The notes under the pieces were generated by a model, which made no database searches, was not told the origin of the DNA, and worked only from the letters and a program-made list of their open reading frames with translations. DNA of 39,680 bases. Origin: a virus. This document shows, piece after piece, positions 10,598-26,254 of the stretch (position 1 is its first letter; every line of letters starts with the position of its first letter). The stretch covers positions 1 through 39,680 of IMG/VR virus record IMGVR_UViG_3300026518_000024. One strand, 5' to 3'. The translations under genes were made by a program, and so were the position numbers.

Positions 10598-10619
10598 TAT
10601 CAGAAATATAGGAGCATGT

Positions 10620-11933: not shown

Positions 11934-11963
11934 TGTATGTGTGCATTCAAACTGGAGGACTGT

Positions 11964-12587
11964 ATGAAAAAATCACATAAAGCGGCTATTACAGAACTAT
12001 TTGGCCAATTTGATCAACTGGACCAAAAACAACGAGTCGAGATATTCAATCTCGTAAGTAAAAAAATACAACAATTGGTGGATATTGATTTTCCTACCGT
12101 TGGTATTCAACTTATCGAGGCCGATAAGATTCGCTCAAATGATTATAACCCCAACAAAGTCGCAAAACCCGAAATGACGCTGCTCCACCATTCTATATCA
12201 AAGGATGGTTTAACAATGCCCGTGGTTGTGGCATCAGGGGATGATCGAGGGGAATATGAGGTTGTTGACGGATTTCACCGGACATCAACCCTCAAGGGTG
12301 ATACTGATCTCATGGAGCGATCTCATGGATATATTCCTGTATCCATATTAGATAAAGGGCTTGATGATCGAATTAGTTCGACAGTGAGACATAATATGGC
12401 ACGGGGGTCACACCAAATTGAATTAACCAGTGCATTAGTAATCTCGTTGACCAAAAACAATTGGACAGATGAAAAACTGGCCAAAGAACTTGGTATGGAC
12501 CCATCTGAAGTATTACGAATGAAACAGGTGTCAGGACTATCTGATATTTTCGGCGATACTAGTGCCTTCTCGGAGGCGTGGGAATAA
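11964..12587 (+). CDS. ibrB: IbrB-like ParB-fold protein
   Basis: 207 residues from ATG 11964, with TGGAGG upstream. The core is VGIQLIEADKIRSNDYNPN, then SISKDGLTMPVVV and YEVVDGFHRTSTL, the ParB/Srx-fold motif in which the (D/E)G-x-HR block binds nucleotide. A helix-turn-helix-like region follows (WTDEKLAKELGMDPSEV). The stop overlaps the start of the next gene (TAATG), so the two are coupled. A ParB-like protein followed by a DUF3440 PAPS-reductase-like protein is the IbrB-IbrA arrangement known from E. coli prophage DNA, where the pair affects immunoglobulin-binding gene expression. The biochemical activity of the pair is not settled. CTPase activity in the ParB fold is possible. Confidence 0.8.
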   Translation: MKKSHKAAITELFGQFDQLDQKQRVEIFNLVSKKIQQLVDIDFPTVGIQLIEADKIRSNDYNPNKVAKPEMTLLHHSISKDGLTMPVVVASGDDRGEYEVVDGFHRTSTLKGDTDLMERSHGYIPVSILDKGLDDRISSTVRHNMARGSHQIELTSALVISLTKNNWTDEKLAKELGMDPSEVLRMKQVSGLSDIFGDTSAFSEAWE

Positions 12588-13845: not shown

Positions 13846-14769
13846 ATGCGCAAGAAAACGACTGAGGAATATATCGCTTCTGCACGAAAAGTCCATGGTG
13901 ATCGATATGATTACTCCAACACGGTTTATGGGGGAGCCAAGTATAAAATCACTGTGATATGTAAAGATCATGGCGAATTTATCCAACGGGCAAGTCATCA
14001 TTTGTCAGGGCGGGGGTGCTCTAAGTGTTTTTTTGAACATCAAAAGTGGACTACCCATAAATTCATTCAAAAATCTAAAGAGATTCATAAAGATCGATAC
14101 AACTATTCCATCTCTGAATATACGGGCGCTAATGAAAAACTGACAATTATTTGCCCCGATCACGGGGAGTTTTCGCAAACCCCCTCACAGCATATGAGTG
14201 GATCACATTGTCCAATTTGTGCCGCACACCACCGAAATATCAGCCGGACTCATAACACTCAGGATTTTATCCGACGAGCCATGAAGATACATGGAGATAG
14301 ATACGATTATTCTGATAGCGAGTATGTTGGGGCGAAACAACCTATTACTATTAGGTGTAGAATCCATGGTAAGTTTTCACAAACCCCAAGTAATCATACC
14401 AATACATTCAATCCGGCAAATTGCCCAAAATGCGCAGGTAGGGTGTCCAATAAATCCCAAGCATGGCTAACTAGTATTGAAATACCGGATGATGTTGCAC
14501 ACCGCGAAGTGTGTGGATTAATTAAAGGGACAAAAATCACGGTTGATGGATATGATCCTGAAACAAATACTGTATATGAATTTCATGGGGATTATTGGCA
14601 CGGTAATCCGGCAATATATGAATCTGGTGATATCAACCCGTCGGTTGGAAAACCTTATGGCGAATTATATCAGAAAACGCTTGAAAAGAAACAAGCATTT
14701 TTGGATGCAGGATTCAAATATATCGAAATGTGGGAATCTGATTGGACAACTACGGAGTCATGTGTATAA
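13846..14769 (+). CDS. Zinc-repeat homing endonuclease, Vsr-like, copy 1 of tandem pair
   Basis: 307 residues from ATG 13846, 2 bases after the ibrA stop codon, with GGATA as weak ribosome-binding site. Three zinc repeats (about 1-65, 66-132, 133-200) have H-G-D/K-RY(D/N)Y, CKDHGEF, HHLSG and C-x(2)-C. The C-terminus (about 215-300) has TVDGYDPETNTVYEF, GDYWHGNP, GELYQKTLEKK and YIEMWESDW, the same EDxHD/Vsr-type core as the gene at 10620. N- and C-terminal thirds are nearly identical to the next gene at protein and DNA level; the middle differs. It is probably part of the mobile cassette carrying ibrBA. Confidence 0.85.
   Translation: MRKKTTEEYIASARKVHGDRYDYSNTVYGGAKYKITVICKDHGEFIQRASHHLSGRGCSKCFFEHQKWTTHKFIQKSKEIHKDRYNYSISEYTGANEKLTIICPDHGEFSQTPSQHMSGSHCPICAAHHRNISRTHNTQDFIRRAMKIHGDRYDYSDSEYVGAKQPITIRCRIHGKFSQTPSNHTNTFNPANCPKCAGRVSNKSQAWLTSIEIPDDVAHREVCGLIKGTKITVDGYDPETNTVYEFHGDYWHGNPAIYESGDINPSVGKPYGELYQKTLEKKQAFLDAGFKYIEMWESDWTTTESCV
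14647..14740 (+). repeat. 94-bp identical block, copy 1
   Basis: Read base by base, this stretch is identical to 15630-15723. It encodes the catalytic C-terminus of the tandem endonucleases (GKPYGELYQKTLEKK onward). This implies recent duplication or gene conversion. Confidence 0.95.
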
Positions 14770-14831: not shown

Positions 14832-15755
14832 ATGGGTAAACGGAAAACTACTGAGGAATATATCGCCTCTGCACGAAAAGTTCACGGTGATCGATATGAT
14901 TACTCAAACACGGGTTATGTGGGGGCCAAATATAAAATTACTGTGATATGTAAAGATCATGGCGAATTTATCCAACGGGCAAGCCACCATTTGTCGGGAC
15001 AAGGGTGTCCTAAATGCTTTTTTGATTCCATTAGTGCAACTCATGAGGAATTCACAAAACGAGCCATCGCAATACATGGAAATATATATACATATCCTCA
15101 TCCCATGTCGGGCATGCACACTCCGCTGAATATACAATGTAATACTTGTGGACAACACTTTGACATAACACCAAATAATCATTTACGCGGATTTGGGGGA
15201 TGTCCCGTGTGCTTGCCATCGCGTATGTCAGAGATGAATATGTATAGTGTTGATGAATTTATAATGGCTGCACGTGGGGTTCACGGAAAGAAATACGATT
15301 ATACTAAAGTGGATTACATGGGGGCAACGATTCCAGTCATTATCATCTGTCCAACACATGGCGAATTCATACAAGTTCCTAATTATCACACATCTGGTCA
15401 TGGATGCGGTAAATGCCATTTTAAAAAGTCGAATATATCCCAGCGATGGTTGAATGAATTAGGACTGTCTGACGATTATAACCACCGAGAGGTAAAGGGG
15501 TTGATCCCCAATCGGCGGTATGTGGTTGATGGATATGATCCTGAAACAAATACTGTATATGAATTTCATGGAGACTATTGGCATGGGAATCCTCAGATAT
15601 ACAAACCCTCAGACATTAATCCAACTATGGGAAAACCTTATGGCGAATTATATCAGAAAACGCTTGAAAAGAAACAAGCATTTTTGGATGCAGGATTCAA
15701 ATATATCGAAATGTGGGAATCTGCTTGGAATCGTGCATATGAACCACCTGTATAA
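14832..15755 (+). CDS. Zinc-repeat homing endonuclease, Vsr-like, copy 2 of tandem pair
   Basis: 307 residues, starting MGKRKTTEEYIASARKV. The first zinc repeat and the nuclease core (YEFHGDYWHGNP, GELYQKTLEKK, KYIEMWESAW) match the neighbour at 13846 almost exactly. The second and third repeats are different (HPMSGMHTPLNIQ, NTCGQHFDI), so DNA specificity may differ while the cleavage domain is shared. The upstream gap (14770-14831) holds a TTGACA-like box at 14787 but no convincing -10 or ribosome-binding site, so expression is uncertain. The similarity to copy 1 continues a few bases past both stops, so the duplication unit included 3' flank. Confidence 0.85.
   Translation: MGKRKTTEEYIASARKVHGDRYDYSNTGYVGAKYKITVICKDHGEFIQRASHHLSGQGCPKCFFDSISATHEEFTKRAIAIHGNIYTYPHPMSGMHTPLNIQCNTCGQHFDITPNNHLRGFGGCPVCLPSRMSEMNMYSVDEFIMAARGVHGKKYDYTKVDYMGATIPVIIICPTHGEFIQVPNYHTSGHGCGKCHFKKSNISQRWLNELGLSDDYNHREVKGLIPNRRYVVDGYDPETNTVYEFHGDYWHGNPQIYKPSDINPTMGKPYGELYQKTLEKKQAFLDAGFKYIEMWESAWNRAYEPPV
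15630..15723 (+). repeat. 94-bp identical block, copy 2
   Basis: Identical to 14647-14740. See that entry. Confidence 0.95.
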
Positions 15756-15761
15756 AATGCC

Positions 15762-15935
15762 TCATATGGGATTGTGGGAATGGGTGGTATAGATGACCCA
15801 TTTATACATCTGCGCCCAAGAACCCACAGTTGCTTTAGCTGCTGGGTAGTTCACTGTTACATTAGAAAACTGACCCACCGGAGGGTAATTTGCGCCAATT
15901 GGACGTACATCGTCTGGTATATTATGATTATGATC
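15762..15935 (-). pseudogene. Orphan coding remnant without a start codon
   Basis: On the minus strand, frame 15935-15762 lies between a TGA (15938) and a TGA (15764). It reads IPDDVRPIGANYPPVGQ, then FSNVTVNYPAAKATVGSWA and QMYKWVIYTTHS. This composition looks like real protein, yet there is no ATG, GTG or TTG before residue ~20 and no ribosome-binding site. It overlaps by a few bases the stop of the leftward endonuclease at 15928. It is best read as the severed 3' end of a gene broken when the endonuclease inserted. I do not recognise the parent; a virion protein is possible. The rest of the gap 15756-15927 holds nothing else I can see. Confidence 0.45.
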
Positions 15936-17025
15936 TCATTGTTGACTTAAAGTCAGATTCCCACATGCTTATTACTTTAAATTCATGCTCTATGAAAGTG
16001 TCACGTTTGGTTAATGTGCGTTCATACAATTCACCATAGGTTATGCCAGTTGAGGGATTAATGTCTGAGGGTTTGTATATCTGAGGATTCCCATGCCAGT
16101 AATCACCATTAAATTCATACACGGTTTTCGTGATTGGATCATACCCATCAACTGTATAATTCTTCCCTTTAATTAATCCCCCAACCTCACGATGATATGG
16201 GTCGTCGGGTATACCCAATTGGGTTAGCCACGCTTGTGATGCATTAGATATCCGATGATTGCATTTTGGGCACCCGTGGCCGGTAAGGTGATCGCTGGGT
16301 CGTTGTATGAATGGTCCACATTTGGGGCATATTATAGTCACTTTGGTGGTTGCAGAAACATAATTTACTTTGGAATAATCATATTTTTGTCCATGACGTT
16401 TAATAGCCTTATCGATCCAGTCATCGTTATTGCTGGTGATACTAACACTGGCCCGTAATTTTCCACATTTTGGGCACCCTTGCCCTTTTAGATGATTAGT
16501 GGGGGTTTGTGAAAACTTACCATGATCGGGGCAAATGATTTCAATGTGTGTTTTGTTATTGGTGTATTGCACTTGTGAATAATCATATTGACCGTGCACC
16601 AGTGTAGCCGCTTCAACAAAATCGTCAGTAGTTTTGTTATATACCCCCTTGCATTTTGGACACCCGCTCCCTCGTATGTGATCATGTGCAGATTGGTAAA
16701 ATACACCATGATGGTAACACCTAATCGGCAACTTGTGTGAATCGGTGGGGGTGTTCACTTCCGAATAGTCATATCTCGTTCCGTGTGTGTTACCAAATCG
16801 GGTTATCAAATCATGTTTTGGTATGTGGCGGGATTCCATGTGACATGAGGGACACCCACTCCCGCGTAGATGATTACTTGGGGATTGTGAGAAATTCCCA
16901 TGTATTCTGCATCTAATAGTAACCGGAGACGCATTGTTGACATAGACAACATTATCGTAACTATACCGATCATAATGAACGAGGTGTGCTTGGTCTATAA
17001 ACTCGTTGGTAGTTTTGCGCTTCAT
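15928..17025 (-). CDS. Zinc-repeat homing endonuclease, Vsr-like, leftward
   Basis: 365 residues from ATG 17025 (MKRKTTNEFID); a TTG at 17061 extends the frame less plausibly. Four zinc repeats have RYSYDNVVY, CRIHGNFSQSP, NHLRGSGCPSC and similar blocks. The C-terminus has NYTVDGYDPITKTVYEF, GDYWHGNP, GELYERTLTKRD and KVISMWESDF, the same EDxHD/Vsr-type core. It is the only member of the island on the minus strand, tail-to-tail with copy 2 and head-to-head with gp14 (72 bases between starts). A TTGACT box on the minus strand near 17061 may drive it. The start MKRKTT(N/E) is shared with the partial gene at the right edge. Confidence 0.85.
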   Translation of the reverse strand: MKRKTTNEFIDQAHLVHYDRYSYDNVVYVNNASPVTIRCRIHGNFSQSPSNHLRGSGCPSCHMESRHIPKHDLITRFGNTHGTRYDYSEVNTPTDSHKLPIRCYHHGVFYQSAHDHIRGSGCPKCKGVYNKTTDDFVEAATLVHGQYDYSQVQYTNNKTHIEIICPDHGKFSQTPTNHLKGQGCPKCGKLRASVSITSNNDDWIDKAIKRHGQKYDYSKVNYVSATTKVTIICPKCGPFIQRPSDHLTGHGCPKCNHRISNASQAWLTQLGIPDDPYHREVGGLIKGKNYTVDGYDPITKTVYEFNGDYWHGNPQIYKPSDINPSTGITYGELYERTLTKRDTFIEHEFKVISMWESDFKSTMRS

Positions 17026-17072
17026 GTAGATTACTATTTCACATTCCCCGAAACGAGTCAACGATTAACTAC

Positions 17073-17096: not shown

Positions 17097-18206
17097 ATGC
17101 CAATGTTTACCCCTACACGACCTTTTGAATTAGCTTCTGATGGAGAGAATTACGGCAACCCTGGCAAATATTCAGCCTTTGCCCGTAATGTGGCAGAAAT
17201 TCCATTCCAGATCGGTGGAATTCATTGCTACATATATCGACTAGAAGGGACCTTTGACCAAAAACGGGATGCTCTAAACCTGATGGTTGATGAATCTGGA
17301 ACCGAAGAGGGTGCAACTGGATTAAACACATTTTTAGGAGTTCAGGACCCAATCTTGGGGGAGAACAGAGACCGAGCATACAATTTTGATGAAGTCCCTG
17401 TTATCAAGGGAATTTATCAAATAAGTCAGTCTGAAATGGAGCTATTACGATTTGGTTTTAAGAGTAATGAGACCGTTAGTATGGAATTTCACCAAGGCCA
17501 AGTTGAGAAAAATTTGGGTCGTAGATTTGTTGAGGGAGATGTCATTGAGCTTCCTCATCTACGGGAGGTTGGGCTTGATGGCAGGGTTGCGAATAAATGG
17601 TATGAGGTAAAATCGATTACTTGGAGTCCAGGTGGATATGACCCCACATACCAGAGGCACATCGTTGGGGTCATTCTTCAACCATTGCGACATCAGCAGG
17701 AATTCCTAGATTTATTCGACAATGTGGTAGATCAATATGGAAAAACATTGGCTGAACAAACTTCTAATGAGAAGCAGCTTAATGATATGACTGATGCTAT
17801 TCAGACTATCGCGGGTGATCATGCATCTACTACGTGGTGGGATACAACTATCATGTGGTTTGATCCGACCAATCCCAACAGTTCTCCAGAGCGATTTACT
17901 GATGATGGATTGCCCCCTAATGGTGAACCTGTTCAGCAGGGACCTAGTTTCCCCACAGGGGGCGTTGAGGGGGATTGGCACCTACGGACCGATTTGGTTC
18001 CTAATCGGCTTTACCAGCTAACTGAGGGCCGTTGGAAGCTACGTGAGATCGATATTAAACGCGATTGGCAACCTTACAACTGGGTTGTTCAATGGCAACA
18101 GCATTTTGCGGAGCCATCTGATAAGTCATACACCCTTCATAGTATACATGATGTGATAACAGATCGGGAAGCACTGTCTGACCCTACCAGAAGTCGGGAT
18201 ATATGA
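17097..18206 (+). CDS. 14: Neck protein gp14-like, extended
   Basis: 369 residues against 256 in T4 gp14. Residues about 25-210 match the T4 architecture by eye: IGGIHCYIYRLEGTFD (T4 MRGVECYYVPRE), a middle region with FGF..NE..SMEFH, then EGDVIELPHLREVG and NKWYEVKSITWSPGGYDPTYQ (T4 [27 protein letters not shown]), followed by GVILQPL. The extra C-terminal ~110 residues contain a module, GDWHLRTDLVPNRLYQLTEGRWK, resembling the repeats inserted in the tail sheath here. The protein forms the neck with gp13. A late promoter lies directly upstream. Confidence 0.8.
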   Translation: MPMFTPTRPFELASDGENYGNPGKYSAFARNVAEIPFQIGGIHCYIYRLEGTFDQKRDALNLMVDESGTEEGATGLNTFLGVQDPILGENRDRAYNFDEVPVIKGIYQISQSEMELLRFGFKSNETVSMEFHQGQVEKNLGRRFVEGDVIELPHLREVGLDGRVANKWYEVKSITWSPGGYDPTYQRHIVGVILQPLRHQQEFLDLFDNVVDQYGKTLAEQTSNEKQLNDMTDAIQTIAGDHASTTWWDTTIMWFDPTNPNSSPERFTDDGLPPNGEPVQQGPSFPTGGVEGDWHLRTDLVPNRLYQLTEGRWKLREIDIKRDWQPYNWVVQWQQHFAEPSDKSYTLHSIHDVITDREALSDPTRSRDI

Positions 18207-18284
18207 TATGACACATAAGTTATCAGAATCCATAATATATCACACCATATTACTCCCGTCATTGAATAATACGGACGAAATCCT

Positions 18285-19847
18285 ATGAGACTATTAGAAT
18301 TGATTGATCCATTTAGTGGAAAATATGAATCATTGGCCGAATCATATCCAGCCTATATGAGCGCGGATGCGATATATTCTAATGTTATTGCTGGGCATCA
18401 TCGGCCCGATGATTTTGATGAGGGTGATTTAGAAGATCGAATTTATCAATATCCTCGGTATAAACTGGTTATGATGAATCCAAATGATATTGATGATGAT
18501 CAATATGAGTTATGGGGTCATGAGGATGACTATGCGGATATGATGCGAAATGGATCGCCTATACCGCCCATTGTCGTTCATAATGATGGCGGGTATTATA
18601 CCATTGTTGACGGAACTCATCGGCACCAAGCGGCATTGGATGTTGGGGTTAAACAAATTCCGGTATATGTCGGGACCAGTGGGTCACTGAACGAAGCATT
18701 CTTTAACAATCATTTAGATATTCTGATGCCCATTGTTAATGAGTTGATGCAAACTACGGCCCGTCCGTTAATTTACAGGTTGTGGAAACGATCCAAAAAT
18801 TCAGTTCTTGCGCTGGCTGCTATTAAACGCCTTCATGATCGTGGTGACCCTGATCCCATAGCCACCCTATCCCAAATGTCTGATATTGATGTACCAATGA
18901 CATTCTTAAGTAAACTCGCACACGAAGCTGGAATACTTACTGAATCTACCAATGGATTGTTGGAGTCATTATCTCCTCACGAAATCAATACGATTGCCAC
19001 AGATGCGTGGGAAATGTTCAAAGATTCTGGTAATACGTGGATCAGCGATCATAAGATGGAATATGATCGTCTTGGTGGTGATGATGAGTTTTATGATTTC
19101 CAGACATGGCTCCATCCGGTAATTGTTGCAGAAGTTGAAGAGGCATATAAATGGCTTCAAGGGGCAATTAATTATACTAATGGTAAGGCCGAAATTTTCA
19201 GAGCAATTACTGCACCACCAGATTGGGTTAGTAGTGGGGCATACACCCAGCGGAATTTGGGAATATTCTGGAGTTACGAGCAGAATCAGGCACAGGCTTA
19301 CTGCGGGGGTGGCAAAGATCACGTTACCTTTATCGTGGCGGGTTTAGTTGATCCATCGGGCATTGATTGGTATTCTACCGTTTCTGCTGTGATGCAATTT
19401 GGGTATGAAGAGGAAGAGGTTACAGTATTCGAAGGGTCAGATGTAGAAGTGGTTGGGATATACAAGGATGGTGATAATACTAATTTGATTCAATCTAAAC
19501 AAATGCTGAATGCTGCAGAAATCCCCACAACGATTGTGTATCATGCTACATTTAGTTCCAATATCCCATCTATTCGAAAGAATGGACTAAAAGCCCAAAT
19601 AGGTAAAAATTCGGCGGACTTTGGCGAACCAGATCGTGGGGTTCATATATTTTATGATATGGATACCTTGGAGGATGCTGTTGCCAATTGGAATATGGAC
19701 TGGCATGAGCATGAAGACAAACCATTATCGGCTATCACATTGCGGATACCAACAGAATGGATAACCAGTCCATCAGATAGTGGATATGGCATGATAGCAC
19801 GTTCAATACCAGCAAGCATGATTGTTGATGTGGTGAATAACATTTAA
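18285..19847 (+). CDS. Polyvalent protein: ParB-like + two ADP-ribosyltransferase-like domains
   Basis: 520 residues. About 75-125 is ParB/Srx-like (PIPPIVVHNDGGYYTIVDGTH, then HRHQAALDVGVKQIPVYV). About 300-395 fits an R-S-E ADP-ribosyltransferase: EIFRAI (Arg strand), LGIFWSYEQNQAQAY (Ser strand), VDPSGIDWYST, then YEEEEVTVFEGSDVEVVGI with the ExE glutamates. About 415-515 is a second ART/KptA-like unit: IVYHATFSSNIPSIRKNGL, GVHIFYDMDTLEDA, then ITLRIPTEWI. No signal peptide or membrane span. It lies 78 bases after gp14 without an evident late octamer; the 78-base gap shows nothing. T4 Alt and ModA/B are phage ARTs, but this layout differs. A NADAR gene lies two genes on. Function as a host-directed modifier is inferred. 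Confidence 0.65.
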   Translation: MRLLELIDPFSGKYESLAESYPAYMSADAIYSNVIAGHHRPDDFDEGDLEDRIYQYPRYKLVMMNPNDIDDDQYELWGHEDDYADMMRNGSPIPPIVVHNDGGYYTIVDGTHRHQAALDVGVKQIPVYVGTSGSLNEAFFNNHLDILMPIVNELMQTTARPLIYRLWKRSKNSVLALAAIKRLHDRGDPDPIATLSQMSDIDVPMTFLSKLAHEAGILTESTNGLLESLSPHEINTIATDAWEMFKDSGNTWISDHKMEYDRLGGDDEFYDFQTWLHPVIVAEVEEAYKWLQGAINYTNGKAEIFRAITAPPDWVSSGAYTQRNLGIFWSYEQNQAQAYCGGGKDHVTFIVAGLVDPSGIDWYSTVSAVMQFGYEEEEVTVFEGSDVEVVGIYKDGDNTNLIQSKQMLNAAEIPTTIVYHATFSSNIPSIRKNGLKAQIGKNSADFGEPDRGVHIFYDMDTLEDAVANWNMDWHEHEDKPLSAITLRIPTEWITSPSDSGYGMIARSIPASMIVDVVNNI

Positions 19848-19850
19848 TTA

Positions 19851-19879
19851 TTGACAAACGATATTAGGTATGATATAAC
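19851..19879 (+). promoter_or_regulatory. Sigma70-type promoter (TTGACA-17-TATAAC)
   Basis: TTGACA (19851-19856), 17-base spacer, TATAAC (19874-19879), then TAGGAG and ATG 19908. It is one of the best host-type promoters in the window. Confidence 0.85.
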
Positions 19880-19907
19880 TCTTATATACCCATATAGGAG
19901 ATGTCAT

Positions 19908-20624
19908 ATGTTTAATATCAAGGTTCCTGCCCATGTTGAAGACAAGCATGTTGATCGTTATGTTGAGGGTGCCAAACAGCGCATATACTATAATGCACGA
20001 AAGGCTAAATTCAAAAATTGGATTGCAGAAGTCCCCGATGCACAGCGATTGGCTGATTGGCTCGGACAAAATGGTGAATTTTCTGGAAACTGGGTATATC
20101 CAGATGGCACCAATGCCGATGATGCTGAATTTACGGCTGAACATTATCCGGTAGACGATTCTATTGTTTGGGCGTCTCATCCAACCACCCGTGGTATCTG
20201 GGCTGGTGATTTTGGTAGTATTCTGATGGGGATGCGTGATAATCTTGATAAGTATGGGTGGCTGACTGAAAAACAGGCAGATGTTGTTCGTAAGGCATTG
20301 GCCCGTAAAGAGCAGTGGGTAGCTGAGGCGGAGGCCAAGAAAGTAGCTTACCGTGAAGAAAATATGAAATCCCAATGGATCGGGAAAATCAAAGAGCGCC
20401 GCGATTGGGTGCTGACCATTACTAAGGTATTGTCATTTGATGGTCAATGGAATACCCTGTATATTAACCTTATGAAGGACCAAAACGGTAACATCATCGT
20501 CGGTAAAGGCACCAAGCGCTATGGAGATGAGGGTGATACCATTAAGGTTAAAGCTACCATCAAGGCTCATGATGAGCGTGACGGCGTTAAACAGACGGTT
20601 GTTAACCGTCCTAAATTTGGATAA
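19908..20624 (+). CDS. Unknown N-terminal domain + C-terminal OB-type nucleic-acid-binding domain
   Basis: 238 residues from ATG 19908 (MFNIKVPAHVED), with ATAGGAG upstream. The C-terminal ~85 residues (SQWIGKIKERRDWVLTITKV, LYINLMKDQNGNIIVGKG, TIKVKATIKAHDERDGVKQT) match a pattern widespread in phage and plasmid polyvalent proteins. It is G-x-(I/V)-x(2)-R, a strand, D-x-x-G-N, then a final TVK-AH-x(4)-GVKQT strand, and looks like a five-stranded OB fold. The N-terminal part has DWLGQNGEFSGNW and LTEKQADVVRKALAR, both shared with the paralogue at 21612. It has its own sigma70-type promoter, so early expression is likely. It may bind ssDNA or RNA. Confidence 0.7.
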   Translation: MFNIKVPAHVEDKHVDRYVEGAKQRIYYNARKAKFKNWIAEVPDAQRLADWLGQNGEFSGNWVYPDGTNADDAEFTAEHYPVDDSIVWASHPTTRGIWAGDFGSILMGMRDNLDKYGWLTEKQADVVRKALARKEQWVAEAEAKKVAYREENMKSQWIGKIKERRDWVLTITKVLSFDGQWNTLYINLMKDQNGNIIVGKGTKRYGDEGDTIKVKATIKAHDERDGVKQTVVNRPKFG

Positions 20625-20629
20625 TTATA

Positions 20630-21103
20630 ATGAATGACCCAATAGCATTCACCAAAGTCAAACTGCCTTATGGATGGTTAGGTAATATGTCACCCCATAG
20701 AGTGTCCATGTGGGGTGATGAATGGCCTACCGCAGAACATGCATTTCAGGTAGGGCGGTTCCCAGAAGATCATATGCTGCGCACTGGAAATCTCCATCAT
20801 ATTAAGTCACCTATGGAAGCCAAACAAATTGTTCAACATTACCGAAATGATATGGTCATCATGCCGACGTCAGATGAAGATGTTGGGTTGATGCATAACG
20901 TGTTAATGGCCAAATTAGAATATAATGATTGGATGATCGACGAATTACTGATGACTCGTGGATGCAGAATAATCGAAGACGTCACTAAGCGTCCTCACGG
21001 AAATGGATTGTTTTGGGGCGCGGCTTTACAAAATGGTAAATGGGTGGGGGACAATATGCTTGGACAACTATGGATGTCGCTACGGGACGAAGATTGGACT
21101 TGA
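20630..21103 (+). CDS. NADAR/YbiA-family protein (candidate ADP-ribose glycosidase)
   Basis: 157 residues from ATG 20630, 5 bases after the OB gene. Blocks seen: YGWLGNMSPHRV, WPTAEHAFQVGRF (family signature WPT-x-EH-x-FQ, about residues 32-43), IKSPMEAKQI, VLMAKLEYND, LLMTRGCRIIED, then GLFWGAA and NMLGQLWMSLRDE. Length fits the family (about 150-180). The usual D-x(1-2)-WG reads GLFWG here, preceded by HGN. YbiA-type enzymes cleave N-glycosidic bonds. NADAR members reverse guanine-linked ADP-ribosylation of DNA made by DarT1-type toxins, and phage NADARs are reported as anti-DarT factors. Co-transcription with the OB gene and nearness to ART-like domains support a role in ADP-ribose metabolism here. 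Confidence 0.8.
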   Translation: MNDPIAFTKVKLPYGWLGNMSPHRVSMWGDEWPTAEHAFQVGRFPEDHMLRTGNLHHIKSPMEAKQIVQHYRNDMVIMPTSDEDVGLMHNVLMAKLEYNDWMIDELLMTRGCRIIEDVTKRPHGNGLFWGAALQNGKWVGDNMLGQLWMSLRDEDWT

Positions 21104-21147
21104 TGTATATGAATAATTATGTATGACGAATTATGGAGGAGAATAGC

Positions 21148-21561
21148 ATGGAAACGAAAAATGAAAAATTTGTTCGGTTGAGTAGTCAGCGGAAGGAAAA
21201 ATCTATCGGATTTATCAACTCGTTGAAAAAGTTGATGGCACCCACATATGAAAGTGATGTTGTTGAGCGACAAGCAATTGTAGATGATCTTTATGCGTCT
21301 GTGGATGATCTTGCTGATGTATTTGGTCTCGGATCAGGAAACCATATCGTGGTTAAGGACACTGATGAGCCGTCTGAGACAATTAAGGACTTGGAGTCTA
21401 TCACGGAGAAGGTGGTGGCCCCTATCACCATTGTGCCCGTCCCTGATGAGGATGAACGATTGATGGGTATGGCCCCGACTATTGACGAAGCCATTAACCT
21501 AATCGCTGACGGTTCCCCAAATGCTGCCCGCATAATGTTGATTAGATTGTTGGCCACGTAA
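21148..21561 (+). CDS. Small acidic protein, unknown
   Basis: 137 residues from ATG 21148 (METKNEKFVRL); GGAGGA lies 6 bases upstream and includes the in-frame ATG 21133, so the later start is chosen. The N-terminal half is helical and charged. The middle is acidic (DTDEPSETIKDLE), and the end (TIDEAINLIADGSPNAARIML) looks like a helical hairpin. No known motif and no membrane segment. It lies in the accessory run between the NADAR gene and the second OB paralogue, 44 bases after the former. Confidence 0.55.
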   Translation: METKNEKFVRLSSQRKEKSIGFINSLKKLMAPTYESDVVERQAIVDDLYASVDDLADVFGLGSGNHIVVKDTDEPSETIKDLESITEKVVAPITIVPVPDEDERLMGMAPTIDEAINLIADGSPNAARIMLIRLLAT

Positions 21562-21564
21562 TGG

Positions 21565-21593
21565 TTGACAATCAGTATTCATTGGTGTAATGT
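21565..21593 (+). promoter_or_regulatory. Sigma70-type promoter (TTGACA-17-TAATGT)
   Basis: TTGACA (21565-21570), 17-base spacer, TAATGT (21588-21593). AAAGGAG and ATG 21612 follow. Confidence 0.8.
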
Positions 21594-21611
21594 GGATGAA
21601 AAGGAGTTACT

Positions 21612-22280
21612 ATGCGACCCACAAATGTTGAAAACCGCCGACGCCCACACACCCTATCAAATCATGAACGCCGTGATCATTATGTTGCCAAGCATAATCG
21701 TGCAGCATGGATCAATCAGTTCCCAGAGGCGTCCACGATTAGCGATTGGTTATATCGGGAGGGAGAGTTTGCTGGACATTGGGAAACCCTACATGGTCAA
21801 CCGATTGATGATTCACAGATTGGTCTTGATGGGATTCCTAATGACCCAAACGCGATATGGTTTGATCATCCCGCTACAGTAGGAATGATGGATGTGCCAG
21901 TGATTAAATCGTTGTTTGACGGTCTTGAGCAATACGGTGCCCTCACCGAAAAACAGACACTATTGGCTCGTAGACTTCTGGCTAATGCAAGAAATAAGGC
22001 AACGCCTGTTGGTAACACCCCATCATCACAGTGGGTAGGAAAGATCAAAGAGCGCCGTAAGTGGGAGTTGACCGTTGATAAAATTCTGTCTTATGAGGGC
22101 AATTATGGCATGTCATATATCAGCATGATGCACGACAAAGATGGTAATACCATTGTAGGTAAAGGGACAAAACGCTTTGGGACAGAGGGAAATACGATCA
22201 CTGTGGTTGCGACTATTATCGATCACACTACTCGTAATGGGGTCAAACAGACGATTATCAATCGTCCCAAAATTGTATAA
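21612..22280 (+). CDS. Paralogue of the OB-domain protein at 19908
   Basis: 222 residues from ATG 21612, with AAGGAGTTACT upstream. The C-terminal half is clearly homologous to 19908-20624: SSQWVGKIKERRKWELTVDK, MSYISMMHDKDGNTIVGKG, TKRFGTEGNTITVVATI, then NGVKQTIINRPK. The N-terminal half also aligns loosely (ISDWLYREGEFAGHWE with LADWLGQNGEFSGNWV; GALTEKQTLLARRLLA with GWLTEKQADVVRKALA). The two genes frame the NADAR gene and each has its own TTGACA promoter, so the pair arose by duplication and both are kept. Probable nucleic-acid-binding OB fold; partner unknown. Confidence 0.7.
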   Translation: MRPTNVENRRRPHTLSNHERRDHYVAKHNRAAWINQFPEASTISDWLYREGEFAGHWETLHGQPIDDSQIGLDGIPNDPNAIWFDHPATVGMMDVPVIKSLFDGLEQYGALTEKQTLLARRLLANARNKATPVGNTPSSQWVGKIKERRKWELTVDKILSYEGNYGMSYISMMHDKDGNTIVGKGTKRFGTEGNTITVVATIIDHTTRNGVKQTIINRPKIV

Positions 22281-22291
22281 CGGAGAATCAT

Positions 22292-22609
22292 ATGTTGGAT
22301 TGCACAGTGGATTATGAGACTATCGCGCAAGAGCGTGAGCAACACACCCGTCGCACAAAACTATTTGCTGCGGTGGTCATAGCAGTCATGGATGATTATA
22401 TTCAAGATGTAAAAACATATGGTCTGCATGAAACAATTAAGCAATGTCGGGCATGGTTTTTCTCAAACGATGGCAAAGAGGTGTTGACCTGTGCTGGCAT
22501 CTCTGTGTCTGAGCGCACCCTAAATGGGATGATTGAATTTATTACCAAAGGTGTCCGATCTAGTATTGCACTGGTGAAAGAATCTAATCGGGATGAAGAA
22601 ATGGCATGA
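22292..22609 (+). CDS. Small helical protein, unknown
   Basis: 105 residues from ATG 22292, with CGGAGA 6 bases upstream. It is mostly helical by composition (ETIAQEREQHTRRTKLF, VVIAVMDDYIQDVKTY, IKQCRAWFFSND), with a mildly hydrophobic stretch FAAVVIAVM too short to call a membrane span. It is 11 bases after the OB paralogue and overlaps the next small gene (ATGA). No family recognised. Confidence 0.6.
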   Translation: MLDCTVDYETIAQEREQHTRRTKLFAAVVIAVMDDYIQDVKTYGLHETIKQCRAWFFSNDGKEVLTCAGISVSERTLNGMIEFITKGVRSSIALVKESNRDEEMA

Positions 22610-22782
22610 TCGAAATGATCAATATATTGGATCATTGGATGTTATATGCCGTTCATGGGCCACATGCTGGCATAAAGCTGGTTGGTGCGAATAATGGATT
22701 GCCGAATGAATATATGTTCCCAAATTGCGAGGGGCATCTTTTTCCGTGGCGTCTACAGATGACAACCCCGAAATCCTCTTGA
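22606..22782 (+). CDS. 58-residue protein, unknown
   Basis: It starts at ATG 22606, overlapping the previous stop (ATGA), and ends at TGA 22780-22782. The protein begins MIEMINILDHWMLYA and includes AGIKLVGANNGLPNEYMF and CEGHLFPWRL, a natural-looking composition. Translational coupling to the upstream gene makes it credible despite its size. Its stop overlaps the TTGACG promoter box of the next unit. Confidence 0.5.
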   Translation: MIEMINILDHWMLYAVHGPHAGIKLVGANNGLPNEYMFPNCEGHLFPWRLQMTTPKSS

Positions 22783-22807
22783 CGGTATTACTATCACATG
22801 ATAAAAA
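22779..22807 (+). promoter_or_regulatory. Possible sigma70-type promoter (TTGACG-17-TAAAAA)
   Basis: TTGACG (22779-22784), 17-base spacer, TAAAAA (22802-22807). Downstream (22842-22855) a TCCTC-GATT-GAGGA hairpin sits in the leader of the gene at 22898, and TATAAATG (22834-22841) resembles the late octamer. The 115-base gap 22783-22897 holds nothing else. Confidence 0.5.
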
Positions 22808-22897
22808 ACGATATCCTGATAGACTCCTCTATCTATAAATGGTCCTCGATTGAGGAGCTATTATTGGGTAAAGGCAACAAGGAAATGGGGAAATATA

Positions 22898-23176
22898 ATG
22901 ATTGAATGTATTTTACTGGCGGGACAATTGATGATCCACGCCACTCACGATATCTCAAATGGTGTAAATGTATCACCGAGTGGTGTGGATTATGAGATAT
23001 TTGTCCCAGTAGTTGGCACTTCATTCACCAATACGGTTGGTATGACAGATGGGGGAACCGTTGCAATGAACATGACAACATACAGGGCTACATATCAGGT
23101 ATACATTTACCAGTCTGAATATGGAGAGTTCACAATCCAAGGACTTTTAGAGTCATGCCCAACGGGAGGAAATTGA
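22898..23176 (+). CDS. Small beta-rich protein, unknown
   Basis: 92 residues from ATG 22898 (MIECILLAGQ); the reading frame is open from 22850 but the ribosome-binding site (GGGGAAA) favours the ATG. Blocks: HDISNGVNVSPSGVDYEI, FTNTVGMTDGGTVAM, YRATYQVYIYQSEYGEFT. It looks like a small beta-sheet protein with no motif I recognise. It precedes the Thg1-like gene by one base and is probably co-transcribed with it. Confidence 0.55.
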   Translation: MIECILLAGQLMIHATHDISNGVNVSPSGVDYEIFVPVVGTSFTNTVGMTDGGTVAMNMTTYRATYQVYIYQSEYGEFTIQGLLESCPTGGN

Positions 23177-23177
23177 T

Positions 23178-24011
23178 ATGAACAAAGATGACTTTGGTGA
23201 CCGTATGAAAGCATACGAGAAACACGAGACTGGTAGACATTTTCTTCCTACACTTCCGGTAGTGGCCCGTATCGATGGCCGGAAATTCAGCAGGTTCACA
23301 AAACCATTCAAAAAACCATTCGATAATCGTATATCCGATGCCATGCGGATAACTACACAGAAACTGGTTGAACATACCAATGCCTGCATTGGATATTGCC
23401 AGAGTGACGAAATCACCCTAATTTTCCAGAACCCGCATATTGGTGGTGAAATGTTCTTTAATGGGAAGATTCATAAGCTCACGAGTGTATTGGCAAGTCT
23501 TACCACTGCGTATTTCATCAGGGCATTGGACTCTGAATTGATTAAATCTGTAGATTCTGATGCCTGTATCACGGGGATGATAGGCCATGCGGTCCCCCAT
23601 TTTGACGCTCGGGTTTGGCAAGTTCCATCACAGACTGAGGCTGCTAATGCACTACTGTGGCGGTGTATGGATGCCCAAAAGAATGGAATCAGTTCGGCCT
23701 GTCGTTCAATGTGTTCTGCCAAATCCATGCATGGTAAAAAACAATCTGACATGCTTGATATGATGCACAACAATGGTGTAGATTACTATAATGCATATGA
23801 ACAAAGTGATCGAGTGGGGACCTTTTTTCAGCGAAAAACATATGAGGTGAAACTATCGGACGATATCTGGAATGCGATACCAGACCACCAACGGAGACCG
23901 GAGAACCGCATGGTAACCCGTTCCCGTGTGGAGAATCTTATGCTGGGATCATTCAAGCAATATATCAATCGTGAAGCTATCATCTTTAATGGTGCCACTG
24001 CGAGGATATGA
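23178..24011 (+). CDS. Thg1-like tRNA nucleotidyltransferase
   Basis: 277 residues from ATG 23178, with GGGAGGAAA upstream. It opens MNKDDFGDRMKAYE, usual for bacterial and phage Thg1-like proteins. The palm-domain metal motifs are present: VVARIDGRKFSRFTKPF (first Asp, residue 33) and IGYCQSDEITLIF (SDE, Asp 77 and Glu 78). Later blocks KLTSVLASLTTAYF and PHFDARVWQVPSQTEAANALLWR are also family-typical. Thg1 enzymes add nucleotides 3'-to-5'. Eukaryotic members add G-1 to tRNA-His, and the bacterial/phage-like branch repairs tRNAs truncated at the 5' end. Here it may mend host or phage tRNAs damaged by defence nucleases (inference). It overlaps the following HNH gene. Confidence 0.85.
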   Translation: MNKDDFGDRMKAYEKHETGRHFLPTLPVVARIDGRKFSRFTKPFKKPFDNRISDAMRITTQKLVEHTNACIGYCQSDEITLIFQNPHIGGEMFFNGKIHKLTSVLASLTTAYFIRALDSELIKSVDSDACITGMIGHAVPHFDARVWQVPSQTEAANALLWRCMDAQKNGISSACRSMCSAKSMHGKKQSDMLDMMHNNGVDYYNAYEQSDRVGTFFQRKTYEVKLSDDIWNAIPDHQRRPENRMVTRSRVENLMLGSFKQYINREAIIFNGATARI

Positions 24012-24310
24012 TGATAGATGCAGCAACGGTTGATCTCCCTGTAGATTATAATAATCTGTCAGCAGGAGAACGAAAGATTATCAGAGATCGCTATGTGGTG
24101 GCCCAAAATGGCAAATGCATGCATTGTGGAAAGCATCTATCATTTAAGCCCCCAGCCAAAATTCGGCGATTAGAAATCCAATGGGAAGCCTTTCCGCCTA
24201 ATTTTTTGAAATTCCCAGTGCATCTCCAACATAATCATGATACGGGGTTGACCGAGGGCGCGGTTCATGCGTATTGTAATGCAGTTTTGTGGCAATACCA
24301 CGGTAGATAA
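24011..24310 (+). CDS. Small HNH endonuclease
   Basis: 99 residues; ATG 24011 is chosen over 24008 because GAGG then has a workable spacing. A zinc pair CMHCG (about residue 36) and the end VHLQHNHDTGLTEGAVH plus YCNAVLWQYHG form an HNH/endonuclease VII-like core: HNH-x-TG, G-x-x-H, CN. This compact form with C-terminal LWQYHG is a common phage HNH type. It overlaps Thg1 by one base, which suggests co-expression. It could be a homing endonuclease or a recombination/packaging nuclease. Confidence 0.75.
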   Translation: MIDAATVDLPVDYNNLSAGERKIIRDRYVVAQNGKCMHCGKHLSFKPPAKIRRLEIQWEAFPPNFLKFPVHLQHNHDTGLTEGAVHAYCNAVLWQYHGR

Positions 24311-24313
24311 GAT

Positions 24314-24520
24314 ATGAGAATTATTATGGCATTTCAGAATTACGATGTAGGGGACGTGATCCCCGTTGGGGATACCTTTCTGATCACTGATGGTATTGAT
24401 TTTGCGGTGTATGCGTATCATCCATACGGTATGGGGGATGGTATGCGGTCTGGTCACATCAATAAAGCATATATTGTATTCGGTTATTGGAAATCGGGGA
24501 TCATGACTCTATTGTTGTGA
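24314..24520 (+). CDS. Small protein, unknown
   Basis: 68 residues from ATG 24314, or 64 from ATG 24326. Blocks: YDVGDVIPVGDTFLITDG and FAVYAYHPYGMGDGM, a small beta-type domain with Gly-rich turns. No good ribosome-binding site. It begins 3 bases after the HNH stop. Family unknown. Confidence 0.45.
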   Translation: MRIIMAFQNYDVGDVIPVGDTFLITDGIDFAVYAYHPYGMGDGMRSGHINKAYIVFGYWKSGIMTLLL

Positions 24521-24792
24521 CTCTGGCCGGAGAATCAGCAACAATACGGAAAGAGTTATCAGACGCAGTTGATCACGGCGGTGACCTACCACAAATTTGC
24601 GAGTCTTTGGTAGATTATGTTCCCCACGGATTGATTTGTGTAATCCCCAATGATGTCATTCAGGGGTGGATTGATGATGATGAGGCTAAGTATGCACAAC
24701 GTGATAGTATCAAACGGGTAACCCCAATCATCGATCAATATCTGGAAATTGACGCATTACCAGAACATCTCCCAACTAACCATAAAGGATAA
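24487..24792 (+). CDS. Small acidic protein, unknown (start uncertain)
   Basis: 101 residues if TTG 24487 is used, 91 from GTG 24517; neither has a clear ribosome-binding site. The sequence contains DSIVVTLAGESATIRKEL, DVIQGWIDDDEAKYAQRD and VTPIIDQYLEIDALPEHLP. It looks like a real helical, acidic protein and keeps its frame to a gene start 4 bases beyond. It overlaps the previous ORF in another frame. No function can be given. Confidence 0.45.
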   Translation: MEIGDHDSIVVTLAGESATIRKELSDAVDHGGDLPQICESLVDYVPHGLICVIPNDVIQGWIDDDEAKYAQRDSIKRVTPIIDQYLEIDALPEHLPTNHKG

Positions 24793-24796
24793 TACC

Positions 24797-25054
24797 GTGA
24801 CCAAACCTACCCCTGATGCAGATGCAATCTATGATACACTCATCACAGCGATCCCTCGTGATGCCCAAACCCCTGACCTATTGGATGCACTAACCCATCT
24901 GAGTGCCAGCGCTATCTGGAGCCTTAATGCCGCAATTGGTAAGGACCCCGTTGATGTGGATAGTCTAATCTCTATCTTTCATTCACAGTTGGTATCTGCT
25001 GTGGGTATGATTGCAACCCATGAACAACCCACTGAGGATGAATCCAATGGCTGA
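24797..25054 (+). CDS. Small acidic protein, tandem paralogue A
   Basis: 85 residues from GTG 24797, with AAAGGA upstream. The core IYDTLITAIPRDAQTPDLLDA, LTHLSASAIWSL and DVDSLISIFHSQLVSAVG is repeated in the next gene (LYQTMLSSLPPDV, LLGALTHLSALGLYSL, LLDVFTGQISDGLTHLV), so the two are a tandem duplicate. All-helical, acidic, unknown function. It overlaps the next gene by 8 bases. Confidence 0.6.
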   Translation: MTKPTPDADAIYDTLITAIPRDAQTPDLLDALTHLSASAIWSLNAAIGKDPVDVDSLISIFHSQLVSAVGMIATHEQPTEDESNG

Positions 25055-25313
25055 TGAAAACGAGATCGAACAACTCTATCAAACCATGTTAAGTTCGTTG
25101 CCACCGGATGTGGATTCTATCGTCCTATTGGGTGCATTAACCCACCTTAGTGCACTTGGGTTGTATAGCTTACTAAAGGGTATTATGGACACTGGTGGGA
25201 TTACATCTGAGCAGGAACTGCTTGATGTATTCACAGGACAGATATCTGACGGGCTAACACATTTGGTCATGAATAATCCGTTGCCAATCAAAACGGTGTC
25301 AGATAATGAATGA
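25047..25313 (+). CDS. Small acidic protein, tandem paralogue B
   Basis: 88 residues from ATG 25047, with GAGGA upstream; the frame is open from 25011 but that part lies inside gene A. It is homologous to gene A throughout (ALTHLSA block at the same position). It is the last clear gene of the accessory run before gp15. Confidence 0.6.
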   Translation: MADENEIEQLYQTMLSSLPPDVDSIVLLGALTHLSALGLYSLLKGIMDTGGITSEQELLDVFTGQISDGLTHLVMNNPLPIKTVSDNE

Positions 25314-25386
25314 TTCCAAAATACATGAGGTGGTAGAATCCGCATATAATTGTGTTCGGGTGGATATCAAACCCATCATGGGGTAA
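25306..25386 (+). CDS. Possible 26-residue peptide
   Basis: ATG 25306 overlaps the end of paralogue B and runs to TAA 25384-25386. The peptide is MNDSKIHEVVESAYN followed by CVRVDIKPIMG. Overlap coupling and sensible composition are the only support. It may be noise. Confidence 0.3.
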   Translation: MNDSKIHEVVESAYNCVRVDIKPIMG

Positions 25387-25391
25387 TTGCC

Positions 25392-25425
25392 GAATCCTTA
25401 CCCCTAAATAGTTGGGTAAGGATTC
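25392..25425 (+). promoter_or_regulatory. Ribosome-site-sequestering hairpin enclosing a late promoter (gp15)
   Basis: GAATCCTTACCC (25392-25403) and GGGTAAGGATTC (25414-25425) are a perfect 12-bp inverted repeat. The 10-base loop holds CTAAATAG (25404-25411), the late octamer. The 3' arm holds AAGGA (25418-25422), the ribosome-binding site of gp15 (ATG 25430). Read-through RNA would bury this site. RNA started at the late promoter (expected near 25417) lacks the 5' arm. Confidence 0.8.
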
Positions 25426-25429
25426 AATC

Positions 25430-26254
25430 ATGGCAATAAAACGTAAACCATACTTTAATGATAGCCAGGTGAAGCGGTTATTAGCCCAGTTGATGTCATG
25501 TTTTGCTGGGTATCAGGTGATGACCGGAACCCAAAGAGACGGGAAATCCAAATTTCGTGACGTCCCAATCATCTATGGGGACATGTCACGGGTGGTCGGT
25601 TATATCATCGGACCACAGGGGGATCAGGCCAACACTGTGTCATATCTGCCAGTGATGTCATTACATATGAACCAATTGGTCCAAAGAGCCAATATGCGGC
25701 AGTCACCACAGCATCGAGAAAAATATAACTTTGTTGAACGCGCCCGTGACCCAGACGGTAATATCCTCACTGACCAACCGGGTAAAAAGAAAACCGTTGA
25801 ACGAGCCATGCCTGTCCCATACGATATGGGCGTCAGTGTATCAATATGGGGTAGTAATGAGGATGAAGCTCTGCAAATTGTGGAGCAGATCATAACCGTG
25901 TTCAATCCTGATATGGATATTCAATTATCGAATAGTCCAGCCGATTGGACATTCTTGACTTCATTGATTTTCGACGGGACGGTTAATATGGAAAAGGTGG
26001 CACCATCCGGTGGTGATACTGATCCGATGTATGTGTTCACGCTGAACTTTAATGTGATGATTTGGATGAGTCCGCCAGCGAAGGTATATGACACCACTTA
26101 TATCTATGAAGTTCACGTTCCTATACTGGCATTAGAGCAACAATTGGATTTTGATAATTTTGTCCAGTTGGACGGGATGATCATACAAGCAACGGATAGT
26201 GATATATCGGTATCAGAGGGTACATCAGTGGGAAATACCCCCACTGCGATTTAA
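25430..26254 (+). CDS. 15: Tail terminator/sheath-stabilising protein gp15-like
   Basis: 274 residues (T4 gp15 is 272) from ATG 25430; an upstream TTG at 25412 lies inside the hairpin. T4-like blocks: KRKPYFNDSQVKRLLAQLMS at the start (T4 YFYNSSFRRYATLMGDLFS), FRDVPIIYGDMSRVV (T4 FIRVPITYASKEHF), LPVMSLHMNQL, VPYDMGVSVSIWGSNEDEALQI plus VEQIITVFNPD (T4 MIYELSIFTRYEDDMFQIVEQILPYFQP), then FNVMIWMSPPAK (T4 FEVNGWMYPPVD). It caps the tail and joins it to the neck. Expression is controlled by the hairpin/late promoter just upstream. Confidence 0.9.
   Translation: MAIKRKPYFNDSQVKRLLAQLMSCFAGYQVMTGTQRDGKSKFRDVPIIYGDMSRVVGYIIGPQGDQANTVSYLPVMSLHMNQLVQRANMRQSPQHREKYNFVERARDPDGNILTDQPGKKKTVERAMPVPYDMGVSVSIWGSNEDEALQIVEQIITVFNPDMDIQLSNSPADWTFLTSLIFDGTVNMEKVAPSGGDTDPMYVFTLNFNVMIWMSPPAKVYDTTYIYEVHVPILALEQQLDFDNFVQLDGMIIQATDSDISVSEGTSVGNTPTAI

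What the first reader, a model, noticed from the sequence alone, without database searches (positions are those of the whole stretch)
18285..21103. ADP-ribosyltransferase-like polyvalent protein next to a NADAR glycosidase candidate
Seen: a 520-residue protein with a ParB-like block, an R-S-E type ART block (IFRA, GIFWSYE, EEEEVTVFEG) and a second YHAT...NGL...GVHIF ART-like block. Two genes on is a NADAR/YbiA protein (WPTAEHAFQ, NMLGQLW), with an OB-domain protein between them. Known: NADAR proteins remove ADP-ribose from guanine placed by DarT1-type enzymes, and phages use NADAR against DarTG defence; T4 phages also carry ARTs (Alt, ModA, ModB). Inference: the phage may both write and erase ADP-ribose, either modifying host targets or protecting its DNA from a host or self enzyme. 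A ParB + two-ART fusion with a linked NADAR is, to my knowledge, not a described set.
Basis: partly seen in the sequence, partly recalled or inferred. Interest (0 to 1): 0.82.

Follow-up and report, generated by a model that had tools for sequence, protein, structure and literature searches.

The report
Phage ADP-ribosyltransferase with linked NADAR eraser
A large bacterial virus carries, among its virion genes, a protein built from a ParB-like piece and two ADP-ribosyltransferase-type domains, two genes ahead of an enzyme of the family that removes ADP-ribose from nucleic acids; a second large virus has the same set at the same place, which makes a 'write and erase' pair plausible but unproven.

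Summary
The 520-aa ORF (18285-19847) has a weak ParB-like block and two ADP-ribosyltransferase (ART) domains; NADAR (20630-21103) is two genes on, above Pfam's cut-off. The middle domain (ART1) belongs to an unnamed family with R, W-[S/T] and E-x-E motifs; its model resembles ART structures at modest scores. The C-terminal domain (ART2) is clearly ART-fold, but has H-H-G, where 21 of 23 aligned relatives have Tyr/Phe at the second place and 21 of 23 keep the Glu. A 376-kb relative (G047) shares H-H-G and carries, between the same structural genes, ART1, a ParB/ART protein, ART2 and NADAR as neighbouring genes, then DUF6280 and Thg1. Three other relatives lack the block. It is a cassette that comes and goes in a late virion operon. 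Its ARTs begin much like T4 Alt, an injected ART; the two cassette NADARs do not. Best reading: packaged ART effectors plus an unpackaged YbiA-type NADAR. Packaging, activity, substrates and pairing are inferred. ParB-ART fusions, polyvalent ARTs and ART-NADAR linkage (T4 alt-30.3) have precedents: new variant of a known kind.

The parts
18285..19847 (+). 520-aa polyvalent-type protein: N-terminal T4-Alt-like start, ParB-like block, linker, ART1, ART2
18285..18314 (+). N-terminus MRLLELIDPF, resembling T4 Alt MELITELFDE and proteins of the G047 locus (MRLLDLFETT etc.); possible capsid-targeting peptide with an L-x-E site
   Evidence: N-termini; background 6 of 150 ORFs; function inferred, by analogy with PMC9026906
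18477..18677 (+). ParB-like block (aa 65-131)
   Evidence: 28% match to the ParB-like part of the 1008-aa protein of G047
18690..18935 (+). conserved linker (aa 136-217), 49% identical to part of the 1008-aa protein of G047
19098..19463 (+). ART1 domain (aa 272-393): Arg306, Trp329-Ser330, Glu376-x-Glu378
19527..19844 (+). ART2 domain (aa 415-520): His420, His454 (Tyr/Phe in most aligned relatives), Gly502 (Glu in most aligned relatives)
19851..20624 (+).
   Evidence: no hit in the G047 regions searched
20630..21103 (+). NADAR, YbiA type: Glu36 and Glu116 present, Arg43 where Lys is usual
   Evidence: residue roles from PMC11543638 (passages)
21612..22280 (+). paralogue of the 257-aa protein, same PHROGs
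22292..22609 (+). DUF6280 protein; a relative (33%) also follows NADAR in G047
23178..24011 (+). Thg1-like tRNA-His guanylyltransferase; also in the cassette of G047 (48%)
17097..18206 (+). left flank: virion structural protein, PHROG 11591
25412..26254 (+). right flank: tail sheath stabilizer; next structural gene after the left flank gene in the three relatives without the cassette

Best explanation
The block 18207-25411 is an accessory cassette set into the late virion operon of a huge T4-like myophage. Its first gene makes a polyvalent effector: an Alt-like N-terminal peptide, a ParB-like piece and two ART domains. Most likely it is packaged into the head, trimmed by the prohead protease and injected with the DNA; ART1 (R-[S/T]-ExE) then ADP-ribosylates a host macromolecule. 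ART2 (H-H-G) is a KptA-like variant or a binding/regulatory ART fold. The YbiA-type NADAR has no such N-terminus and stays in the producing cell, where it removes ADP-ribose, probably from guanine in DNA or RNA, left by the phage's own ART or by a host enzyme. Shown: domains, motifs, folds (ART2 firmly, ART1 moderately), synteny, presence/absence at five sites. Inferred: packaging, activity, substrates and the ART-NADAR pairing.
For: ART2 model: KptA Z 9.8, DarT1 7.9; profile hits KptA (E 3.7e-4) and, weakly, DarT1 (E 0.073). ART1 model pLDDT 78.7, pTM 0.70; best structural rows are ARTs, Z up to 5.9. ART1 motifs kept in 10 rows. G047 has the same set at the same site: ART1 35%, ART2 45%, NADAR 54%, Thg1 48%. 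Site without the block in 3 of 3 TerL relatives inspected there. Alt-like starts in 6 of 6 polyvalent-type proteins picked at the G047 locus and 0 of 16 other genes listed there; background 6 of 150 ORFs. NADAR Glu residues kept in 3 of 3.
Against: No assay and no proteomics. ART1 structural scores are under 8 (0 of 738 chains reach 8) and Foldseek's best E is 0.26. ART2 lacks the usual Glu. DUF6280 and Thg1 travel with the cassette too, so co-presence does not single out ART with NADAR. NADAR is found in 2 of 25 IMG/VR records with ART2-family members (4 of 28 with three named phages added) and in 2 of 8 records with ART1 members; in G051 it is not beside ART1. The N-terminal pattern and its groups were defined after seeing the sequences; only 3 of the 6 G047 proteins lie inside the cassette, 10 of 21 other proteins listed match it, and the LR756511 NADAR matches it; in the window alone p is 0.05. 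Conserved NADAR Lys is Arg.
Confidence: 0.5

Rival explanations
1. Unpaired accessory genes. ART and NADAR are separate host-takeover and counter-defence genes that share a cassette because it is a common insertion site. The NADAR counters host DarT-type DNA ADP-ribosylation or small ADP-ribose signals; the ART modifies host proteins.
For: NADARs are common in large phages and proposed to act mainly on small ADP-ribose derivatives (PMC9503650, passages). DUF6280 and Thg1 share the cassette. LR756511, with a 50% identical NADAR, has no detectable relative of this ART in its record.
Against: ART and NADAR are both present or both absent at the 5 sites inspected; in G047 the ART2 gene directly precedes NADAR.
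Confidence: 0.33
2. Toxin-antitoxin-like pair, as reported for myxobacterial YarT-YbiA: the ART is toxic in the cell that makes it and the YbiA-type NADAR is its antidote, perhaps excluding other phages.
For: The YarT-YbiA precedent pairs a non-DarT ART with a YbiA-type NADAR (PMC11125620, passages). The NADAR here has the YbiA-type Glu.
Against: The ART is a long multi-domain protein in a late virion operon with an Alt-like N-terminus; no sequence link to YarT was tested.
Confidence: 0.12
3. RNA-repair cassette: ART2 as a reduced KptA (H-H-h), Thg1 as a tRNA 5'-end enzyme, NADAR clearing ADP-ribose products.
For: ART2 aligns best with KptA and has His where a phage KptA has His in the alignment. 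Thg1 is in both cassettes.
Against: Only KptA residues about 88-181 are matched; G047's ART2 is a complete 118-aa gene without the other lobe. NADARs tested in PMC11833690 do not act on phosphate-end RNA ADP-ribose (passages). ART1 and ParB are unexplained.
Confidence: 0.05

Closest known systems
Phage polyvalent proteins with ART domains (Pfam ART-PolyVal PF18760; PMC5512222)
   Same: Unrelated domains (ParB-like, ARTs) in one phage protein set among late virion genes; a relative (L016) combines a ParB_N match, ART-PolyVal and ART2
   Different: [quoted passage not shown] ART1 has an R-[S/T]-ExE pattern, no Pfam match, and only weak matches of two relatives to an uncharacterised PHROG, 35613.
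T4 Alt (PF03496) with gp30.3 (PF08010)
   Same: R-S-E ART (per PMC5512222), similar N-terminal peptide, virion context, NADAR-type gene on the same strand nearby
   Different: ART1 does not hit PF03496 (Alt scores 124 bits); the NADAR is PF08719 with a YbiA-type Glu, not PF08010; extra ParB-like and ART2 domains
KptA/Tpt1 RNA 2'-phosphotransferase
   Same: Closest solved fold for ART2 (Z 9.8); His at motifs 1 and 2 in the alignment
   Different: N-terminal lobe not matched; Pfam score under cut-off (13.9 of 26)
YarT-YbiA and DarT1-NADAR (DarTG1) pairs
   Same: ART gene close to a NADAR gene
   Different: No DarT match in the window protein; NADAR has Glu, not the Asp of DarT1-linked members; late phage operon

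Membership tests
NADAR superfamily | Pfam NADAR domain above cut-off | tested here: met
   52.9 bits, cut-off 35.1
NADAR superfamily | catalytic Glu of the WPTxEH motif and the second acid | tested here: met
   Glu36 and Glu116, aligned with YbiA and two phage relatives; roles
NADAR superfamily | conserved Lys (K95 of E. coli C7 NADAR) | tested here: not met
   Arg43 here, Arg in 3 of 3 aligned; position assigned by me from the YbiA alignment
ART superfamily (ART2) | ART fold | tested here: met
   29 of 805 chains with Z 8 or more; rows 1-11 are KptA, later rows mostly ARTs by title, with CC0527 (3 rows) an exception
ART superfamily (ART2) | active-site pattern of its own family, H-[Y/F]-E | tested here: not met
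   H-H-G; same in G047
ART superfamily (ART1) | ART fold | tested here: inconclusive
   Best rows are ARTs but Z is at most 5.9; Foldseek best E 0.26
ART superfamily (ART1) | R-S-E motifs | tested here: met
   R in 10 of 10, S/T in 9 of 10, first E in 10 of 10 rows, second E nearly invariant
Alt/VIP2 ART family | Pfam ADPrib_exo_Tox PF03496 | tested here: not met
   No hit listed up to E 1 for the whole protein or up to E 10 for the ART1 segment; HMMER's filters drop most very weak matches
KptA/Tpt1 | two-lobe enzyme | tested here: not met
   Only KptA residues about 88-181 are matched; G047 homologue is a 118-aa gene
Polyvalent proteins | two or more unrelated effector domains in one phage protein | tested here: met
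   ParB-like (weak) plus ARTs
Polyvalent proteins | delivery with the DNA | not testable with these tools
   Only the N-terminal resemblance and gene context
DarTG1 | DarT-family toxin gene | tested here: not met
   No DarT hit for the window protein up to E 1; 1 of 24 ART2 members reaches E 0.047
YarT-YbiA | ART related to YarT | not tested
   No YarT sequence was compared

The most novel reading that the evidence does not exclude
A packaged writer with an unpackaged eraser: the phage loads ADP-ribosyltransferases of a new R-[S/T]-ExE family into its head, injects them to mark host nucleic acid or protein, and keeps a YbiA-type NADAR only in the producing cell so that late-made ART does not spoil its own DNA or RNA. 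The H-H-G ART2 would be a second ART chemistry kept under selection, since two phages about 45% identical in this domain share it.
Probability: 0.27. Interest if true: 0.82.

Novelty: new variant of a known kind. Interest (0 to 1): 0.6.

Why it matters
NADARs are widespread in large phages, but their natural targets there are mostly unknown. A cassette that holds ART and NADAR together at a fixed spot in the late operon, and is missing as a whole in relatives, gives a concrete pair to test for a phage-made mark and its eraser. The ART1 family also places R-S-E-type ARTs inside polyvalent proteins, which the 2017 survey did not report for the Alt family.

Tried and rejected
Whole-protein and window searches found no relative in the phage collection or IMG/VR, so I first took the neighbourhood as unconserved, and the TerL relatives seemed to confirm this. 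That was wrong: the ART1 motif scan and the profile scan led to G047, which one search had not listed.

Rejected: ART2 as an ordinary H-Y-E ART (H-H-G here). ART2 as a full KptA (one lobe missing). NADAR as a gp30.3 type. Chance neighbourhood (G047 synteny). Transcription from a T4-type late promoter could not be argued: TATAAATA occurs once, at 31107, and chance expects 3.2.

Led nowhere: genome scans with the Rhizobium protein and with A3; profile searches for ART1 in the PDB; search for ART1 (A3) in 25 records with ART2 members, 0 of 25; the first AlphaFold job left ART1 unmodelled. Rows dropped: of the 32 loci, nine (L018, L021, L023, L029, L030, L031, L034, L035, L042) were left out of A6 as copies; eight are identical in the domain to a kept row, and L034 is nearly the same as L027. 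The Stenotrophomonas phage protein L005 was left out of A4. Of the loci with ART1, L108, L109, L110 and L113 (further copies) were left out of A9, and so was the Rhizobium protein, because the structure tool does not admit it. The 19 loci other than L095, L099 and L102 were dropped after the profile scores. Only 3 of 21 TerL relatives were inspected at the cassette site; the other 18 were not, and many of those records are short fragments.
Full report
WHAT IS THERE. The window is a 39,680-base virus record. It shows the late region of a large T4-like myophage: tail sheath, tail tube, head closure and terminase genes; in the phage collection the terminase is nearest to those of phages such as PA5oct and Atu_ph07 (35-38% identity). 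The 520-aa ORF, the 257-aa ORF and NADAR follow each other with gaps of 3 and 5 bases.

THE TWO ART DOMAINS. The C-terminal block (ART2) has relatives as small stand-alone genes in Bacillus phages, on Pseudomonas and Acetobacter plasmids, and both alone and inside large proteins in 32 IMG/VR loci. A profile of 24 members finds RNA 2'-phosphotransferases (E 3.7e-4) and, weakly, DarT1 (E 0.073) in the PDB. The AlphaFold model is confident over this block (ten-residue means 70-96 from model residue 191 on) and matches KptA at Z 9.8, rmsd 2.9, 85 residues. In alignment A6 (23 rows besides the window) 21 of 23 have Tyr or Phe at the second motif (L037 His, L041 Cys) and 21 of 23 have Glu at the third (L017 and L037 do not). 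Eight of eight plasmid and Bacillus-phage copies in A2 also have Glu. The window has His and Gly.

The middle block (ART1) first matched one Rhizobium plasmid ORF (29.8%, E 1e-4). A DNA motif scan of IMG/VR gave 22 loci, of which three (L095, L099, L102) score strongly with the profile. A profile scan then gave eight loci: three lie in the same records as those, and five are new (L107, L111, L112 and its copy L113, L114). Among them are a 1442-aa protein with three copies (L111) and stand-alone genes (L112, L114). R, G, W and the first Glu are invariant in 10 of 10 rows of A9; Ser or Thr follows the Trp in 9 of 10. No Pfam family was listed up to E 0.1 for 7 ART1 proteins. In PHROGs, 2 of 6 match family 35613 of unknown function (E 0.0019 for L095, 0.021 for L111) and one matches 23214 (E 0.083); so the family may have an uncharacterised PHROG, but no name. 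The model (pLDDT 78.7) aligns best to ART structures, top Z 5.9 over 101 residues; most of the 50 rows are ARTs by title, with IcmQ, BC2332, CNFy and Tne2 among the exceptions. Z under 8 is middling by the tool's own note, 0 of 738 chains reach 8, and Foldseek's best E is 0.26 in a list that also holds unrelated proteins. In the best row model residues 56-164 fall on chain residues 1-147 of an ART whose active site I recall as R-S-E. An ART is likely, not certain.

THE NADAR. It exceeds Pfam's cut-off and is 50% and 53-54% identical to NADARs of LR756511 and G047. The two acids named as catalytic in PMC11543638 (passages) are present (Glu36, Glu116), the second as Glu, the YbiA type. The usual Lys is Arg in 3 of 3.

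NEIGHBOURHOOD. In the records of 21 terminase relatives plus LR756511 the 520-aa protein matched 1 of 22, and only at the ParB block; 1 of the 21 has a NADAR, about 200 kb from its terminase (G041). Many of these records are fragments, so absence there is weak evidence. In the three inspected at the site (G033, G035, G041) the virion gene matching 17097-18206 is followed by the sheath stabilizer, with no window cassette gene found between; G041 has an HNH gene there, G033 about 0.5 kb that I did not examine. In G047, a 376-kb contig whose terminase is 69% identical, the same two flanks enclose a 467-aa protein with ART1 (35%), a 1008-aa protein with the linker (49%), a ParB-like part (28%) and a weak ART-PolyVal match (24.5 bits, below cut-off), a 118-aa ART2 (45%), NADAR (54%), DUF6280 (33%) and Thg1 (48%). 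The window protein thus looks like a condensed mosaic of three neighbouring G047 genes. The 257-aa protein and its paralogue have no match in the G047 regions searched. ART and NADAR are both present at 2 sites and both absent at 3; DUF6280 and Thg1 follow the same pattern, so the unit is the cassette.

H-H-G IN TWO PHAGES. The G047 ART2 also has His at motif 2 and no Glu at motif 3. Two phages this far apart sharing the variant argues against recent decay. A phage KptA has His at the same place in the alignment. H-H-h is the pattern of the ART clade tied to RNA repair (PMC9503650, passages).

PACKAGING. T4 Alt begins MELITELFDE; the window protein begins MRLLELIDPF. With one regular expression written after seeing the sequences, six proteins at the G047 locus match (three inside the cassette: 467-aa, 1008-aa, ART2; three just left of the structural gene: 201, 210 and 428 aa), and 0 of 16 other genes listed there, NADAR, DUF6280 and Thg1 included (Fisher p 1.3e-5, groups chosen by me). 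In the window 2 of 39 match, the ART and the gene at 7465-8040 (p 0.05). Of 21 proteins listed from other records 10 match, among them the LR756511 NADAR, while L016, L046, L099, L095 and SIOphi ART-type proteins do not. Background is 6 of 150 ATG-ORFs in eight loci. T4 internal proteins enter the head by a short N-terminal capsid-targeting sequence, and Alt loses a 7-residue propeptide to the prohead protease (PMC9026906, passages). This is suggestive only.

KNOWN OR NEW. ParB and ART domains are parts of phage polyvalent proteins (PMC5512222, passages), and L016 joins ParB_N (below cut-off), ART-PolyVal and ART2. [quoted passage not shown] A YarT-YbiA pair is reported in myxobacteria (PMC11125620, passages). 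Literature searches with the terms listed no paper whose title or abstract start names this cassette; only open-licence papers are held and only the top of each list was seen. New here, as far as these searches go: the ART1 family, the H-H-G ART2 variant, and an ART-NADAR cassette present or absent as a block in a late operon.

VERDICT. A real and uncommon arrangement with clear precedents for each part. The pairing is worth testing; the present evidence does not prove it.

Noticed in passing
window 8098-9705, 10557-11933, 13846-14769, 14832-15755, 15928-17061, 28773-30845: Six HNH/DUF4379-type endonuclease-like genes lie among virion genes (four tested by PHROGs; 13846 and 14832 judged by eye); the adjacent pair 13846 and 14832 share nearly the same N-terminus. 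A relative has others at nearby places (L080).
   Followed up: no
window 11937-12587 and 12578-13843: A ParB-like gene followed by a PAPS-reductase-type gene (PHROG 2302).
   Followed up: no
L111 and record G051 (97 kb): A 1442-aa protein with three ART1 copies and a HEVTH peptidase-like motif; the record has nine ART-PolyVal matches, including a frame of 2490 aa, and a NADAR.
   Followed up: partly
L016 4267-8343 and similar loci such as L019-L025: Large phage proteins that begin with a nucleotidyltransferase-like block and hold an ART2 domain; many end in a shared tail (SGYIPS..NDPRFKTALTVDV).
   Followed up: no
L002 14965-15462 (LR756511.1): NADAR behind what look like capsid genes of a 595-kb phage record (judged by eye), with an N-terminus (MLTWTEFLEAR) resembling a capsid-targeting peptide.
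   Followed up: partly
L011, L012, L013 3947-4354: Stand-alone ART2-family gene overlapping by 4 bases an integrase gene on Pseudomonas plasmids (pD4A-46, pND6-1, pCAR1).
   Followed up: no
L095 199-783: Next to an ART1 gene, a second ART-like ORF (YHGT..GVSLT motifs) on the opposite strand; no Pfam match.
   Followed up: no
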